64,000 nt of DNA from Desulfuromonadales bacterium (GTDB lineage Bacteria; Desulfobacterota; Desulfuromonadia; Desulfuromonadales; JAHYIW01), in assembly GCA_029210745.1 (NCBI GenBank), contig JARGFI010000001.1, positions 81,374 through 145,373 on the forward strand. The letters are read 5' to 3'. The notes below the pieces were generated by a model, which saw only the letters and a list, made by a program, of their open reading frames with translations, made no database searches and was not told the origin of the DNA. The translations under genes and the position numbers were made by a program. This document shows, one piece after another, positions 26,384-34,830 of this stretch (within the stretch, counting starts at the first letter, position 1; every line of letters starts with the position of its first letter).

Positions 26384-26434
26384 AACAGGTCTTTTTTCTT
26401 CAAGAACTCGTTAACCTCTGATAGAGTGAGGCGG
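26384..26434. repeat. 51-nt imperfect direct repeat, copy A
   Basis: 43/51 positions match copy B at 31047..31097 by manual alignment. Confidence 0.75.
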
Positions 26435-26573
26435 TTCTGAAAGCATTTAATGTCATACGCTTGAGTTCAGAGGCCGATCTCAAGGCCTGTTTGTCAGAAT
26501 TGGAAGCGGTCATCAAAACCGCCCTGCAAGACGGGCCGGTGAGGGTCCGTTGATCGCAGGTGGGGGATCAGAC

Positions 26574-28679
26574 ATGCAACCAAGAGCATTGGAATTATTA
26601 AGGAGAGCCCTAAATAATACGCAGGCGGTCTTTCGGGACGGCCAGTGGCAGAGTATTCAAGGGCTGCTAGAACGCAAGCGGATTCTGGTCGTGCAGAGAA
26701 CCGGATGGGGCAAAAGCGTCGTCTACTTTCTCGCCACCAGGCTGCTTCGCGACCAGGGGGCCGGACCGACATTGCTCATCTCTCCGCTGCTCTCCCTGAT
26801 GCGCAACCAGCTTGAAGCCGCCGAACGGATCGGCATCACCGCCAGGACGATCAACAGCAGCAATACCGACGATTGGGATCAGATAAAAGAGGATCTGCAG
26901 CAGGATCGTGTCGATCTCCTGCTGATTTCTCCGGAAAGACTGGCCAACGACGCTTTTCGGCAGGACGTTCTGGCTGATATCGCCAACAGGGTGGGCCTGT
27001 TCGTGGTCGATGAGGCCCATTGCATTTCCGACTGGGGGCATGATTTCCGCCCTGATTACCGGCGAATTACCCGCGTCCTGCAAGCCCTCCCCCCGAATGT
27101 CCCGGTCGTGGCTACCACAGCCACGGCCAATGACCGAGTGGTCGCTGATGTGATCTCACAGCTCGGCGACAACATCGTGCTCTCCCGTGGGCCCCTGACG
27201 CGCGAGAGTCTCAAACTGCAGAATATCAATATGCCCAGCCCGGCAGCCCGCATGGCCTGGTTGGCGGAAACGATTCCCACCCTGCCGGGCAGCGGAATCA
27301 TCTACACTTTGACCCAACGCGATGCCGAACGATTGACGGAACTGCTCCAGATCAACCAGATCAAAGCCAAAGCTTACCACGCCGGTATCCCCAATAACGA
27401 AGACGGCACCTCGGCAAGAGAGGCGATGGAACAGCAGCTTCTCAACAACGAGATCAAAGTCCTGGTGGCGACCGTCGCCTTGGGGATGGGTTTCGACAAA
27501 CCGGACCTGGGGTTCGTCATCCACTTCCAGCGCCCCGCTTCGGTTGTCCATTATTACCAGCAGGTCGGCCGGGCCGGTCGCGCGGTTGATGAAGCCTTTG
27601 GAGTGCTGCTCTGCGGCGAGGAAGACGACCACATCGCCGATTTTTTCATCCGCAGCGCTTTTCCGCCCCAGGATCATGTCTCGGCGATTCTCGGTGCTCT
27701 CGATCAAACGGATGGGCTATCGATTCCGGCCATGCAGAGGGAACTGAACCTGCGCCAGGGGCAGATTGAAAAAACGCTTAAATTCCTGACCGTCGAATCT
27801 CCCTCACCGGTCACCAAGATCGGGTCGAAGTGGCATGTCACCGCCGCCGCTGCCACCTACAGGGTCAACCAGGATTATGTGGATGCGATCATTGCGATCC
27901 GCCGCGAAGAGCAGGCACAGATGCAGGCGTACATGACCCATCAAGGCTGCCTGATGCAGTTTCTCGCCCAGGCCCTCGATGATCCGAACCCGCAAGCGTG
28001 CGGTCGATGTAAAAACTGCAACCCGGACCTGCTGTTGTCTGAAGGTTACAATGACGCGCTCGCCAACCGGGCCGCACTGTTCCTGAAAAGGAGTTACCAA
28101 CCGATCGATCCGCGCAAAAAATGGCCCGCAGCCAATATCTTTGCGCATTACCCGTTCGGAGGTTCGAACATCCCCGCAGAACTGCAAGCCGCCGAAGGCC
28201 GGGCCTTAAGCCTCTGGCGTGATGCGGGCTGGGGGCAGCTCGTCGCTTCGGGCAAGCACGAAACCGATCATTTTGCCGACGAGCTGGTCACGGCCTGTGC
28301 CGAGATGATCGCGCAGTGGCAGCCCGACCCGGCGCCGAAATGGGTGACCTGCATCCCCTCGCAGCGGCATCCCAACCTGGTGCCCGATTTCGCCCGGCGT
28401 CTGGCGGACGCGCTCCATCTCAAGTTTGTCCCGTGCATCGAAAAGGTGCGGGACCACCAGCAACAGAAATTCATGGAGAACAGCTACCAGCAAGCGAAGA
28501 ATCTGGATGGTGCTTTTCAGGTCAACCTCGAACCCAAAGCCTGGAGCCCCTGCCTGTTGGTGGATGATATGGTTGACTCGCGCTGGACGTTCACGGTTGC
28601 CGCTGCTTTGTTGCGCCAGGCTGGAGTTGCCGCCGTGCACCCCCTGGCGTTGGCACTCAATTCCCCCCGCATGGATTAA
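26574..28679 (+). CDS. RecQ-family ATP-dependent helicase with C-terminal ComF-like phosphoribosyltransferase domain
   Basis: VVQRTGWGKSVVYF Walker A, VVDEAHCISDWGHDFRPDYRRI, ACGRCKNCN zinc motif, C-terminal LLVDDMVDSRWTFTVAAALLRQAG; track ORF begins at TTG 26550. Confidence 0.9.
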   Translation: MQPRALELLRRALNNTQAVFRDGQWQSIQGLLERKRILVVQRTGWGKSVVYFLATRLLRDQGAGPTLLISPLLSLMRNQLEAAERIGITARTINSSNTDDWDQIKEDLQQDRVDLLLISPERLANDAFRQDVLADIANRVGLFVVDEAHCISDWGHDFRPDYRRITRVLQALPPNVPVVATTATANDRVVADVISQLGDNIVLSRGPLTRESLKLQNINMPSPAARMAWLAETIPTLPGSGIIYTLTQRDAERLTELLQINQIKAKAYHAGIPNNEDGTSAREAMEQQLLNNEIKVLVATVALGMGFDKPDLGFVIHFQRPASVVHYYQQVGRAGRAVDEAFGVLLCGEEDDHIADFFIRSAFPPQDHVSAILGALDQTDGLSIPAMQRELNLRQGQIEKTLKFLTVESPSPVTKIGSKWHVTAAAATYRVNQDYVDAIIAIRREEQAQMQAYMTHQGCLMQFLAQALDDPNPQACGRCKNCNPDLLLSEGYNDALANRAALFLKRSYQPIDPRKKWPAANIFAHYPFGGSNIPAELQAAEGRALSLWRDAGWGQLVASGKHETDHFADELVTACAEMIAQWQPDPAPKWVTCIPSQRHPNLVPDFARRLADALHLKFVPCIEKVRDHQQQKFMENSYQQAKNLDGAFQVNLEPKAWSPCLLVDDMVDSRWTFTVAAALLRQAGVAAVHPLALALNSPRMD

Positions 28680-28682
28680 CGT

Positions 28683-29975
28683 ATGACAAACTTCTTAACG
28701 AACGATACCAAAGCGATCATTCTGCTCTGCGGCATCCTGGGCAAGGATCGCTCAGCCGAGCCCCTCACCCAGACAGAATACAACAACCTCGCCCGCTGGC
28801 TGGTGCGCGAGCAATTGCGTCCTGAAGCGCTGCTGAGCATGGCCAACCTCGACGATGCCGCGGCCGGCGCCAAGATCAACCGGGAGAGACTTGGAAAGTT
28901 GCTCGGCAGAGGGGTGCAACTCGGTTTTGCCATTGAGGAATGGCAACGCAACGGTTTGTGGGTCATCAGTCGCAGCGATCCCGAGTACCCCGCCCGTTAC
29001 AAGGGTCATCTCAAAGACAAGGCGCCGGCCCTGCTGTTCGGCGCTGGCGACAAGTCGCTGCTTCAGGGCGGGGGCCTGGCGATGGTCGGCTCCCGCGATG
29101 TGGACCGCGAGGGGGAAGAGTTCACCCGCCAGGTTGCGGAAACCTGCGCGCGCAATCGGATGCTGGTGGTTTCGGGGGGCGCGCGGGGGGTCGATCAGAT
29201 CTCCATGCGCACCACACTTGAATCCGGTGGTCGAACCATCGGTGTTCTGGCAGAAAATCTGCTTAAAGCGAGCATTGAACGCCATGCCCGCCATGCCATC
29301 GCCGAAGGGCAGTTGCTGCTCATCTCCCCCTATCATCCTCAGGCGCGTTTTACCGTCGGCACGGCCATGGGGCGCAATAAGCTGATCTATGCCATGGCCG
29401 ATTACGGGCTGGTGGTCAGTGCGGATTACAAAAAGGGTGGTACCTGGGCCGGTGCCGAGGAAGAGTTGAAGCGGGATAAACCGCTTGCGGTGTTCGTCCG
29501 CACCCACGGGCAGATCCCCACCGGCAACCGGAAGCTGCTCGATTTGGGCGCTCTGGAATGGCCGGCCACCATGCAACAGGACGATCTGTCCCAGCAGCTT
29601 GCCGTTTTGGCGGATAAACAACCAGAATCTCAGACAGCCGTCAGGGAGACTGAAACACTCAACCTCTTTGATCATCAACCAAAACAGGTGACCGAAGTCC
29701 GTGAAGACCAACCGAAGATAAGCACATCATCCAACACACCCACTGTAGCCGTTGAGTTCGAGCAAATTGAACCGGACCTGCCGGTCGCTGTCTACGCTGC
29801 CGTCCTGCCGGTCATCTTACACCATCTTCAAAAGCCGATGACCGTTGATGACTTGGCGGTGCAGCTGGATGTGACCAAAGGTCAACTGAATCTCTGGCTG
29901 AAAACGGCGGTCGAAGACGGCGCGGTCAAAAAGCACAACAAACCGGTTCGTTACTCTGCAAAGAAGGAGAAATAG
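28683..29975 (+). CDS. DprA/Smf-like DNA-processing protein with C-terminal winged-helix-like region
   Basis: MVGSRDVDREGEEFTRQVAE...VVSGGARGVDQISMRTTLESGGRTIGVL Rossmann core; stop-to-start gap of 3 nt from helicase gene. Confidence 0.88.
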   Translation: MTNFLTNDTKAIILLCGILGKDRSAEPLTQTEYNNLARWLVREQLRPEALLSMANLDDAAAGAKINRERLGKLLGRGVQLGFAIEEWQRNGLWVISRSDPEYPARYKGHLKDKAPALLFGAGDKSLLQGGGLAMVGSRDVDREGEEFTRQVAETCARNRMLVVSGGARGVDQISMRTTLESGGRTIGVLAENLLKASIERHARHAIAEGQLLLISPYHPQARFTVGTAMGRNKLIYAMADYGLVVSADYKKGGTWAGAEEELKRDKPLAVFVRTHGQIPTGNRKLLDLGALEWPATMQQDDLSQQLAVLADKQPESQTAVRETETLNLFDHQPKQVTEVREDQPKISTSSNTPTVAVEFEQIEPDLPVAVYAAVLPVILHHLQKPMTVDDLAVQLDVTKGQLNLWLKTAVEDGAVKKHNKPVRYSAKKEK

Positions 29976-30391: not shown

Positions 30392-30945
30392 GTGATGTTG
30401 ATCCGACTTGAATCACCCGCCATATCCTGTGTCCATAAATATTTTCACACGAGGGTCTTTCACTGGGACGGCACTCTCGACAAATTCGTCGGCGACGAAA
30501 TCATGGCCTTCTGGGGAGCACCGCTGGTACAACCGGAGCATGCCGAACTGGCGTTGCGTTGTGCCTTGCATATGTCTGATCGACTGAATGAATTACAGGA
30601 GAAATGACGACAGGGAGGGAAACCGATCCTCGATTGCGGCATCGGGCTCAATACCGGGCCGGTCCTGATCGGAAATATCGGTGCCGCCGGGAAAAAAATG
30701 GATTACACCATTATTGGTGACCACGTAAACCTCGGTGCCCGCACCGAAGCCCTGACCCGTAGCTATGACTGCCGGATTCTGATCACCGAGTTCACCCTGA
30801 ACAAGGTCGCGGCATTGATTGAATCGGGAGCTATCGGACATATTCAACTGTCGAGGCTGAACGGGTCAAGCTCAAGGGGAAGGAAGTGCCAGTAACCGTT
30901 TGCCGAATTGACTCCATCCAAGAAGATCGTCAGCAAGAAAACTGA
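30392..30945 (+). pseudogene. Class III adenylate/guanylate cyclase fragment
   Basis: [18 protein letters not shown]...ELQEK*RQGGKPILDCGIGLNTGPVLIGNIGA...MDYTIIGDHVNLGAR in one frame interrupted by TGA at 30605; C-terminal VEAERVKLKGKEVPV in another frame. Confidence 0.85.
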
Positions 30946-31046
30946 GAATGGTTCACCCCCATTAAAATCTGTCCCCGCTTAGTACTATTCTTCTTCATTC
31001 CGATCGCACATTTCGCTCCGACAAATGTAAACATTTATCCCCTGTT

Positions 31047-31097
31047 AACAGGTCTTTTTCCTTCAAGAATTCGGTAAGGCCTGATAGAGTAACGCGG
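31047..31097. repeat. 51-nt imperfect direct repeat, copy B
   Basis: Matches 26384..26434. Confidence 0.75.
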
Positions 31098-31228
31098 ATC
31101 AAAAAGAATTTTTTTTCTGTCTGTTCTGGTACGGAGCGAGGAGTTTATTCAGCAAAACCGGAACCAGACCTGACGCCGCTTTTCGGGATCAGACAAATGA
31201 TCAATAGCTTATCTGGGGGAGATTAAGA

Positions 31229-31521
31229 ATGAAAATTGATGTAATTCACTCGCTAATCGATTCCTTTGAATCGCATTTTCAGCAAACCGAAGGCGGAGTT
31301 GAATTCTGGCTTGCCTGTGATTTTCAGCATCTGCTCGGTTACTCTGAGTGGCGTAACCTCACCGCAGTCATATCCAAGGTTAGGACCGCCTGCGAGGTAT
31401 CTAACCATGCCATTCCAGACCATTCAACTAAATGGTAGATCTCGAGTCCAGCAGGCAACGCGAAGTCGATGACATCATACCCAAACATAGACATCGGAAC
31501 AACTCGCTGTCAATAGCATAG
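31229..31521 (+). pseudogene. DinD-like gene remnant (frameshifted and truncated)
   Basis: VEFWLACDFQHLLGYSEWRNLTAVISKVRTACEVSNHAIPDHST then, in another frame, MVDLESSRQREVDDI. Confidence 0.7.
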
Positions 31522-31578
31522 CGGCGGTACTTGACCAGAACCGTGCAACCACGACTGCAACACGCAGGAGAGCGATTC

Positions 31579-32982
31579 ATGAGACTAAACAGCCTGGCAG
31601 TTTACAACTTCAGACTATTCAATTTCTTCACAATAGAATTCCATCCCAAGTTAACAGTCATTGTCGCCCCGAATGGTGGTGGGAAGACCGCAATCCTTGA
31701 CGCCATCAGGATCGCCCTTGGTCCGTATTTGAGTGTATTCCCGACAGGGAAAAACAGCGGTGTCGAAAATGATGACATTCGTCAGGTCAAGACACTGCCA
31801 GAAATTGGACAAATGGCCGATGCCTTGCCCGTTGCTATTCACGCTACGGGTTGTCTTAGTTCATCGAAAACGGAAGAGTGGTATCGAGAGCGGGTTTCCC
31901 GAAAAGGCAAGACGACGATCAAAGATGCAAAACAGTTGATGGCTTATGGAAGGAGGCTGCAATCTAGAGGGGCGAATAACGAATCGGCTGAAACCTGGCC
32001 GTTGATCGCTTATTACGGGACCGGTCGTTTATGGGATCAGTTAAAGCTGTCCGGGAAAAAACTGTTTAAGACAGGTTTTCATACGAGGGCTGCTGGTTAT
32101 CAGGATTGCATGACACCGGCCTCAAGCTACAAGTTTTTCATCGAATGGTTCATGTATGCGACACGTGCGGATAATCAGGCAAAGTTACGCGCCATTGAAC
32201 AAAGTCGTTCCGTATCACAGCACGACCTGAACGGGATTTCCGGACCGTTCTCCATTCTTCTCAGGGCTGTTGATCAGGCGGTCGGAACTGTATTGAACCC
32301 AACGGGATGGGCCAACCTGCAGTTTTCGGAAACACTCGAGATGGCAATCATCGAGCATCCTGAACAGGGTGTTTTGGCAGTCGGTCAGATGAGCGACGGC
32401 ATTCGCAATACCATCGCCTTGGTTGCGGACATTGCCTGGCGCTGTGTGCAGCTGAATGCCCATCTCGGCGACGCCGCAGTAAAAGAAACGGAAGGGATAG
32501 TCTTGATCGATGAGGTCGATATGCATCTCCATCCTGAGTGGCAACAGCTGATCGTTGGCTCATTGCGCGAAGCATTCCCTCGGATTCAATTCATCGTCAC
32601 GACGCACAGTCCACAAGTTCTTACTACGGTAGATGCCGAATCTATCCGCAGAATACATCCCGAAGTGAATGAAACCGGGGTTGTCGTTTGCATTGCAAAA
32701 CAGCCTGAAGAACAGACCAAGGGTGTTGCCAGCGCTCATGTCATGGCATTAAACATGAACACTGACCCTGTCCCCCCTGTCGTTGAAGCGCGGTGGCTAA
32801 GCGACTATCGCGCACTAATTCAGCAAGGGTTGCATGAAAGCCATGAAGGATCGGATTTGCGCGGAAAATTAGTAGCTCATTTCGGAGAAGGTCATCCTGA
32901 AATTCTCGAATGTGACCGATTGATCCGCCTTGAAACGTTTAAGCGGAGCCTCCCCTCCCGTTCGCATGGACAGGAAGGGTAA
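31579..32982 (+). CDS. ptuA: AAA-family ATPase, PtuA-like (Septu system)
   Basis: VIVAPNGGGKTAILDAIRIALGPYL Walker A, EGIVLIDEVDMHLHPEWQ, FIVTTHSPQVLT; AGGAG RBS before MRLNSLAVYNF; paired with HNH gene. Confidence 0.8.
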   Translation: MRLNSLAVYNFRLFNFFTIEFHPKLTVIVAPNGGGKTAILDAIRIALGPYLSVFPTGKNSGVENDDIRQVKTLPEIGQMADALPVAIHATGCLSSSKTEEWYRERVSRKGKTTIKDAKQLMAYGRRLQSRGANNESAETWPLIAYYGTGRLWDQLKLSGKKLFKTGFHTRAAGYQDCMTPASSYKFFIEWFMYATRADNQAKLRAIEQSRSVSQHDLNGISGPFSILLRAVDQAVGTVLNPTGWANLQFSETLEMAIIEHPEQGVLAVGQMSDGIRNTIALVADIAWRCVQLNAHLGDAAVKETEGIVLIDEVDMHLHPEWQQLIVGSLREAFPRIQFIVTTHSPQVLTTVDAESIRRIHPEVNETGVVVCIAKQPEEQTKGVASAHVMALNMNTDPVPPVVEARWLSDYRALIQQGLHESHEGSDLRGKLVAHFGEGHPEILECDRLIRLETFKRSLPSRSHGQEG

Positions 32983-32988
32983 CCCGGT

Positions 32989-33633
32989 ATGCATAGATTG
33001 CAGAGAGGGGCGGCTCCGCACTGCCTGGGAAGGTACGACTATCGCCACGACAGTTGGAACGGGGTAACGCCTAGACCTGATGAAAAAGCGGAAATCTGGG
33101 TCGCTCTTGACGCTATGCAAGGAGAACGCTGCGCTTATTGTGAAGCGGACATCGCAGTCCCTGCTGATCGCCATATCGAACATTTTCACCAACGGTCGCG
33201 CTACCCGCAAGGAACTTTTCAGTGGCAAAACCTGTTCGGTTCCTGCAACCGGGGGAATAATTGCGGCAAACACAAGGATAGTTGTGGCGCTTATGACCAT
33301 CTGGACTTGATCAAGCCGGATGAGGAAGACCCCGATGTTTTCTTCGTTTTCGTCTCAGACGGAACCATCAAGGTTCGTTCAGGCTTGGATGCGCGCAATA
33401 CCCGCCGTGCCTCGGAAACGCTGAGAATATTCAACCTTGACGCGGAAAACGGGCCATTGCGGCATATGCGAAAAAGGGCCGTGGCAGGTTATCTGCAAAC
33501 GGCTGAGGAGATTCGAGAGCTGGCTCAGGTGCTCCCGCCCGAGGATTGGATGCCGTTTTTGCATGCTGAACTTGCTGCCACCGATCACCTGCCGTTTGTC
33601 ACGACCATCCGGCATGCTCTACTCGCTTGCTAA
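32989..33633 (+). CDS. ptuB: HNH endonuclease, PtuB-like (Septu system)
   Basis: RCAYCEADI...HIEHFHQRSRYP...WQNLFGSCNRGNNCGKHK HNH-type motif; 6 nt after ptuA-like gene. Confidence 0.8.
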   Translation: MHRLQRGAAPHCLGRYDYRHDSWNGVTPRPDEKAEIWVALDAMQGERCAYCEADIAVPADRHIEHFHQRSRYPQGTFQWQNLFGSCNRGNNCGKHKDSCGAYDHLDLIKPDEEDPDVFFVFVSDGTIKVRSGLDARNTRRASETLRIFNLDAENGPLRHMRKRAVAGYLQTAEEIRELAQVLPPEDWMPFLHAELAATDHLPFVTTIRHALLAC

Positions 33634-33924
33634 GGATTGAACCTGCCTGACCATCAAATCCCCGAAAAACAGTTTTTATACCTAACTTACTGATTTTAAT
33701 ATTGTAAATGTAATTTGTCCATCAACCCGAAATCAATATTGACTGCATGTGATTAAAGGTATATTTTCGCAGTTTCATCTTCGAATATGACGCTTCCGAA
33801 AGAGTGCCGTCAATTTTGAAAATACGGCATTAACGATCTTGTCTGAACAAGGAAACGCGTCCGCCACCTTCTCTTTGCAGGTCGCCGCGCGACCTTCTGT
33901 TTCCATCAATGACGCGGATTTTTC

Positions 33925-34830
33925 ATGGCAAACAATGCAACTCGATTTTTTCTTGAATATTACGCTTACCTTGTCGCCAACGCACTGATCAATCTTCTGC
34001 CACGCAAGGCAGCTTTTGCGCTGGGCCGATTGCTGGGACTGCTCAGTCTGAAATTGATGAAAAAGCGGGTTAATCTGGCCGAGGATAACTTGCGTCGCGC
34101 ATTCCCTGAAAAATCCTCACCAGAAATCGGGACACTGCTGCGCGAGCATTTTATGCATCTCGGTGTGAGCGCCATCGAAATGTTGCGCCTGACCCGACTG
34201 CAACCGGGCATGCCGGTCGAAGCAGAGGTCCAGGTGATCGGCGAAGAGCATCTCAAGGAAGCATTTGCTCTGAACAAGGGGGTCATTTTTCTTTCCGCGC
34301 ACCTTGGTTTCTGGGAAATTGCCTCGGTGCACATCCCCAATCTCGGTTACCCGCTCGACTTTGTGGCGCGCAAACTGAAAAATCCGCGACTTGACGTGCT
34401 GCTTCAGGAAACCCGTTCAAAGCACGGCTGCCGCTTCATCGACCGACGTCGCGGCGCGCGCAAAATTGTCAAAGCGCTGGCGCAAAACCGCATGGTCGGC
34501 ATTCTCCTTGATCAACATGCCACCCCGTCGGAGGCGACCAGGGTCAACTTCTTTAATCGACCTTGCTGGGCAACGCCCATCGTGACACAAATTGCGATGA
34601 AGCGCGGAATACCGGTGGTCCCCACCTTTGTGACCCGCACCCGCAGTGACGATTACATCCTTGAAATTCAGGCTCCGTTGATCCTCGCAGGGAACAGTGA
34701 CGATCCCGAACAGCTCCGCATCAATACCCAGTTGTTGACGGATATTATTGAATCCGCTATTCGCAAAAATATTCCCCAGTGGTTCTGGGTTCACCAGCGT
34801 TGGCGGTCAATGAGACCTGACCCGGAATGA
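33925..34830 (+). CDS. Lysophospholipid/lipid A acyltransferase (LpxL/HtrB family)
   Basis: VIFLSAHLGFWEIAS; LLDQHATPSEATRVNFF; FWVHQRWR. Confidence 0.92.
   Translation: MANNATRFFLEYYAYLVANALINLLPRKAAFALGRLLGLLSLKLMKKRVNLAEDNLRRAFPEKSSPEIGTLLREHFMHLGVSAIEMLRLTRLQPGMPVEAEVQVIGEEHLKEAFALNKGVIFLSAHLGFWEIASVHIPNLGYPLDFVARKLKNPRLDVLLQETRSKHGCRFIDRRRGARKIVKALAQNRMVGILLDQHATPSEATRVNFFNRPCWATPIVTQIAMKRGIPVVPTFVTRTRSDDYILEIQAPLILAGNSDDPEQLRINTQLLTDIIESAIRKNIPQWFWVHQRWRSMRPDPE

What the first reader, a model, noticed from the sequence alone, without database searches (positions are those of the whole stretch)
31579..33633. Septu-like PtuA ATPase / PtuB HNH pair
Seen: AAA ATPase with GGGKT Walker A and IDEVDMHLHPEW, followed after 6 nt by a Cys/His HNH-type protein (CAYCEAD...HIEHFHQRS...NLFGSCNRGNNCGKHK). 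Established: Septu is an ATPase plus HNH nuclease anti-phage system, and the same pair serves as effectors of some retrons. No reverse transcriptase is visible nearby, so a stand-alone Septu is more likely.
Basis: partly seen in the sequence, partly recalled or inferred. Interest (0 to 1): 0.6.

Follow-up and report, generated by a model that had tools for sequence, protein, structure and literature searches.

The report
Stand-alone Septu with retron-type nuclease cassette
This is a two-gene anti-phage system (Septu: an ATPase plus an HNH nuclease) that stands without a retron, but its nuclease and the end of its ATPase belong to the set used by Ec78-type retrons, and comparison with 80 relatives shows that this back half is a ready-made 'warhead' that bacteria swap behind different ATPase front halves.

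Summary
Observation confirmed: PtuA at 31579-32982 (467 aa) and PtuB at 32989-33633 (214 aa), 6 nt apart, both intact; PADLOC 529 and 297 bits. It is a stand-alone Septu, a member of a known kind. The details are less ordinary. PtuB passes NCBI's cut-off for retron-Ec78 PtuB; PtuA fails the matching Ec78 cut-off. Across 81 pairs, the ATPase head (residues 1-345) and the rest have different histories: PtuB type changes 24 times on the head tree but only 7 times (the minimum) on the tree of the C-terminal tail (346-467), with the break just after the THSP motif. In Nitrosomonas-like loci the tail+PtuB segment is replaced in place (head 88%, tail 28%, PtuB 26%, downstream gene 85% identity). The window pair is thus a stand-alone head carrying the retron-Ec78-type tail+nuclease cassette. 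By analogy with retron-Eco7, tRNA(Tyr) cleavage is the leading, untested guess for its action. I found no earlier report of the swap, but key papers were not readable.

The parts
31579..32613 (+). ptuA head: ABC/AAA ATPase part, residues 1-345 (Walker A GGGKT, signature MSDG, Walker B LIDE, H-loop THSP)
   Evidence: head tree
32614..32982 (+). ptuA tail: last two strands plus C-terminal helical bundle (residues 346-467) and stop; first half of the exchangeable cassette, X type
32989..33633 (+). ptuB: HNH nuclease (C48, C51, H65, N81, C86, C92), X type; second half of the cassette; passes NCBIfam NF041761 (172 > 150 bits)
31565..31578 (+). ribosome-binding site (AGGAG) in front of ptuA
   Evidence: sequence

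Best explanation
A complete stand-alone Septu (PADLOC Septu type I) of modular build. The PtuA head is the ATP-binding, oligomerising sensor/regulator; the PtuA C-terminal tail plus PtuB form the effector cassette. SHOWN here: gene anatomy, intact catalytic residues, no RT in the genome, distinct histories of head and tail+PtuB with a break at about residue 345-355, and in-place replacement of tail+PtuB in relatives. INFERRED: the tail is the dock that holds and positions PtuB, which is why the two travel together; ATP-bound PtuA keeps PtuB inactive; phage infection relieves this and PtuB cuts a nucleic acid, aborting infection. Because the cassette is the Ec78/Eco7 (X) type, I expect host tRNA, most likely tRNA(Tyr), to be the target, at about 45% confidence, rather than phage DNA. 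The confidence given below is for the stand-alone modular Septu, not for the target.
For: Family. No retron: 0 RVT_1 in own genome; no RNA family. All ten RT-linked PtuAs put in the tree have 522-564 aa with an N-terminal extension and an insert where aligned; the window's has 467 aa and lacks both. Mosaic: 8 PtuB types need 24 changes on the head tree and 7 on the tail tree; pieces of the head give 26-28 against 7-8 for the tail, shuffles about 41; PtuB type is predicted from 40-residue windows at 34-58% for windows ending by residue 340 and 92-100% from windows starting at 341; one clade of X-carrying heads is rejected (p-AU 1.6e-6). In-place swap with flanks intact: L009 vs L042. Within-type tail-PtuB co-divergence beyond the head. 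Target analogy: retron-Eco7 PtuAB depletes tRNA(Tyr) (PMC11555353); a stand-alone E. coli Septu also cuts tRNA(Tyr) (PMC13096335).
Against: Docking of PtuB on the tail was not seen here; linkage, or homologous recombination at the conserved THSP codons, could by itself put the break there. Septu from E. coli ATCC 25922 is described as a DNA nuclease and retron Ec83 PtuAB as an ssDNA nuclease (as cited in PMC11555353 and PMC12948488), so targets vary. Window PtuB is only about 34% identical to retron X-type PtuBs. No relative close enough (best PtuB identity 58%, best PtuA 49%) shows a swap at the window's own locus.
Confidence: 0.8

Rival explanations
1. A plain Septu in which head, tail and PtuB have always been inherited together; the retron-like scores only reflect PtuB conservation.
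For: PADLOC files both proteins as Septu type I without difficulty; within a PtuB type, head and PtuB distances do correlate (r 0.76 in X).
Against: Head and tail trees conflict strongly (24 vs 7 changes; p-AU 1.6e-6), and syntenic loci show the tail+PtuB segment replaced between conserved flanks.
Confidence: 0.07
2. A decayed retron I-A: a former RT-msDNA-PtuAB system that lost its RT and ncRNA, leaving the effectors.
For: PtuB passes the Ec78 retron cut-off; gene remnants (DinD N-terminus, cyclase pieces) lie just upstream.
Against: The window head lies outside the retron head clade (99/92) and lacks the retron extension and insert; no retron-type RT lies near the stand-alone relatives examined; no RT remnant in the window (best E 0.1).
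Confidence: 0.06
3. Same proteins, but the cassette cuts phage DNA (direct interference) rather than tRNA.
For: HNH fold; ATCC 25922 Septu and retron Ec83 reported as DNA nucleases (cited in PMC11555353 and PMC12948488).
Against: The X-type cassette with tested members (Ec78/Eco7) is linked to tRNA(Tyr) loss (PMC11555353; PtuB match); ATCC 25922 PtuB is Y type and Ec83's is nearest Z type.
Confidence: 0.35

Closest known systems
Septu type I (PtuA-PtuB), E. coli, PDB 8ee4/8eea
   Same: Two-gene ATPase + HNH system without RT; PtuA of the same length (465 vs 467 aa) and fold (best solved match).
   Different: Its PtuB is Y type (matches L038 PtuB at 7e-49, window PtuB only at 9e-8), so its cassette differs.
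Retron I-A / Ec78 (Eco7) effectors PtuA-PtuB, PDB 9vh1, 9kjx, 9nnb
   Same: PtuB of the same type (E 1e-33 to 1e-37 by phmmer; the closest chain is another retron IA PtuB, 9n69_F, 5e-40; passes NF041761); PtuA tail of the same clade.
   Different: Retron PtuA has an N-terminal extension of roughly 60-75 aa and a longer insert, heads form a separate clade, and the system has RT + msDNA; none of that here.
Hma-linked Septu (HmaA-PtuA-PtuB-HmaB-HmaC)
   Same: Same PtuA/PtuB subfamily; e.g. Rhizobium rhizogenes L079, L025, L030, L121.
   Different: The window pair has no Hma genes; the Septu-Hma link was already reported (PMC8565338).

Membership tests
Septu (PADLOC type I) | PtuA ATPase adjacent to PtuB HNH protein, same strand | tested here: met
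   6 nt apart; PADLOC 529 and 297 bits
Septu (PADLOC type I) | no reverse transcriptase next to the pair | tested here: met
   0 RVT_1 matches in the genome; no RT hit in the window
Septu (PADLOC type I) | intact Walker A/B and HNH residues | tested here: met
   K36, D311/E312, H343; H65, N81 conserved
Septu (PADLOC type I) | protects against phage | not testable with these tools
   needs a phage challenge
Retron I-A (Ec78 / PADLOC Septu type II) | RT gene upstream | tested here: not met
Retron I-A (Ec78 / PADLOC Septu type II) | msr-msd RNA | tested here: not met
   no Rfam match at E<=1 in 30900-33930; RNA families outside Rfam would be missed
Retron I-A (Ec78 / PADLOC Septu type II) | PtuA above NF041760 cut-off, with N-terminal extension and insert | tested here: not met
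   284 < 500 bits; extension and insert absent
Retron I-A (Ec78 / PADLOC Septu type II) | PtuB above NF041761 cut-off | tested here: met
   172 > 150 bits

The most novel reading that the evidence does not exclude
In the Septu/retron I-A family the PtuA C-terminal tail (about 120 residues after THSP) plus PtuB is an exchangeable effector cassette that is repeatedly replaced in place behind stand-alone, Hma-linked and retron ATPase heads, and the cassette type, not the presence of an RT, decides what the system cuts. The window pair is a natural chimera: stand-alone head, Ec78-type cassette. The exchange itself I rate about 0.9; that the cassette sets the target about 0.5; the probability given is for both together.
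Probability: 0.45. Interest if true: 0.7.

Novelty: new member of a known kind. Interest (0 to 1): 0.5.

Why it matters
Septu and retron I-A effectors are treated as two systems with puzzlingly different reported targets (phage DNA, ssDNA, tRNA(Tyr)). If the tail+PtuB cassette is the unit that moves and sets the target, naming systems by neighbouring genes (RT or not) will mispredict what they cut, while typing the cassette may predict it; the natural breakpoints also show where chimeras should be joined to test sensor and warhead separately.

Tried and rejected
Retron remnant near the pair: no RT hit in the window (best E 0.1), no Rfam hit. Hma remnant in the window: only weak hits elsewhere (best E 0.012). 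PtuAB next to Hma as a new association: rejected as new, already published (PMC8565338). A motif regex for RTs missed the known retron RT of L080; replaced by phmmer with real retron RTs. A PtuB search of viral contigs found no relative. Head and tail of the window do not differ clearly in base composition (GC 0.50 and 0.51), so composition gives no sign of a recent swap here. The key structure papers (PMC12318543, PMC12240667, PMC12673091) are not held in the library, so prior description of the swap in them cannot be excluded. The PtuB type of the tRNA-cutting Septu EcB88 could not be decided from its published H75/N91 positions alone.

Full report
Observation. PADLOC assigns them to PtuA (PDLC00310, 529 bits, E 3e-159) and PtuB (PDLC00358, 297 bits, E 2e-89). 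Retron I-A models score lower (ATPase_I-A 293 bits, HNH_I-A 184 bits). Walker A/B, H-loop, the zinc cysteines and the HNH residues are intact.

Not a retron. The genome (2.72 Mb, 100% complete by its record) has no RVT_1 match. Rfam finds only two tRNAs in the window at curated thresholds and nothing at E<=1 in 30900-33930. In the relatives collected, the ten different RT-linked PtuAs taken into the tree (L081, L084, L085, L138-L142, L145, L146) have 522-564 aa; the others taken into the tree have at most 513 aa. The extra length is an N-terminal extension and a longer insert before the signature motif, both absent from the window protein.

A mismatch that started the rest. NCBI's Ec78 PtuB model is passed (172 > 150 bits) while the Ec78 PtuA model is failed (284 < 500). 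By sequence, the best solved relative of PtuA is the stand-alone Septu PtuA 8ee4 (E 2e-85), but the best solved relatives of PtuB are retron I-A PtuBs (5e-40 to 2e-33 for the first five); Septu PtuB 8ee7 comes at 9e-8.

Head and tail have different histories. I collected PtuA-PtuB pairs from GTDB genomes, plasmids, viral contigs and further genomes, and built trees of PtuB and PtuA. They conflict. PtuB clades with strong support were named as eight types (X contains the window and the Ec78-type retrons). PtuA was then cut after THSP (residue 345). On the head tree the eight types need 24 changes, on the tail tree 7, the least possible. Pieces of the head of the same length as the tail give 26-27, shuffled labels about 41. 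Nearest-neighbour prediction of PtuB type from 40-residue windows is 34-58% for windows starting up to residue 301, 66% at 321-360, and 92-100% for windows starting at 341 or later. Fifty-residue trees fall from 28-29 changes (before 345) to 7-8 (from 346) and behave the same without retrons. Forcing the X-carrying heads into one clade is rejected (p-AU 1.6e-6); the retron heads are one clade (99/92), but forcing the retron tails into one is rejected (p-AU 3e-4), because retrons carry X, Z and U cassettes. Limits: the types were defined on the PtuB tree alone but after seeing it, and the cut point was placed at a motif I had noticed; the sliding scans are the check on that.

In-place replacement. 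L009 (X) and L042 (Z) have the same locus: a glyS-like gene upstream 75%, the gene next to ptuA 64%, PtuA head 88%, PtuA tail 28%, PtuB 26%, downstream gene 85% protein identity. DNA similarity stops at PtuA residue 350 (window numbering) and resumes after ptuB. L012/L042 stops at 349. L025/L049 and L030/L052, both Hma-linked, show conserved HmaA DNA and head, divergent tail and PtuB, and only a short stretch of resumed similarity (28 codons) after ptuB. Breaks in the pairs examined fall at window residues 347-371, most at 347-351. Several of these are metagenome assemblies, but isolate genomes show the same contrast (L006 Pseudomonas vs L033 Acidovorax: head 70%, tail 29%, PtuB 22%). For the window itself: against stand-alone Y pairs, head 44%, tail 32%, PtuB 24%; against X retrons, head 23%, tail 36%, PtuB 34%.

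Structure. AlphaFold gives PtuA mean pLDDT 89; the tail is the last two strands of the ATPase fold plus four helices (385-457). The best solved fold is E. coli Septu PtuA in the PtuAB complex.

Mechanism. That an ATP-bound PtuA oligomer restrains PtuB and infection releases it comes from published Septu/retron work and general knowledge, not from data here. Retron-Eco7 PtuAB depletes tRNA(Tyr) (PMC11555353), and a stand-alone E. coli Septu cuts the tRNA(Tyr) variable loop (PMC13096335), so tRNA(Tyr) is my leading guess for this X-type pair. ATCC 25922 Septu (Y type) is cited as a DNA nuclease and Ec83 (nearest Z, weakly) as an ssDNA nuclease, which would suit a cassette-sets-target rule; so few data points cannot establish it.

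Surroundings. The pair lies in a strain-variable island: a same-genus genome (G001) is 95-96% identical up to window 26444 and again from 33729, with the two edges on different contigs there. The island also holds a complete PsyrTA (26550-29975) and gene remnants. The genome has a second PtuAB, T type, inside a BREX type 1 operon.

Verdict. The window pair is a normal Septu by family; the swap of tail+PtuB is the part of interest. I found no description of it in the open papers searched, which does not show that none exists.

Noticed in passing
window 26550-29975: Complete PsyrTA defence pair (RecQ-like PsyrT 975 bits, DprA-like PsyrA 437 bits) beside tRNA-Leu.
   Followed up: partly
window 26384-26448 and 31047-31111: 65-nt direct repeat (82%) bracketing the PsyrTA block; the left copy sits at the edge of the part shared with a same-genus genome, suggesting two successive insertions near tRNA-Leu.
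   Followed up: partly
window 31229-31438 and 30392-30895: Truncated DinD-like N-terminus and pieces of an adenylate/guanylate cyclase gene, i.e. gene remnants in the island.
   Followed up: no
L078 1-7000 (same genome, contig 22): Second PtuAB (T type) lying between the BREX-1 genes pglX (end) and pglZ, followed by brxL.
   Followed up: partly
L017, L023, L025, L030, L037, L041, L043, L047-L052, L079, L121: Septu pairs next to or inside Hma operons, carrying X, Y, Y2 and Z cassettes; the Septu-Hma link itself is published (PMC8565338).
   Followed up: yes
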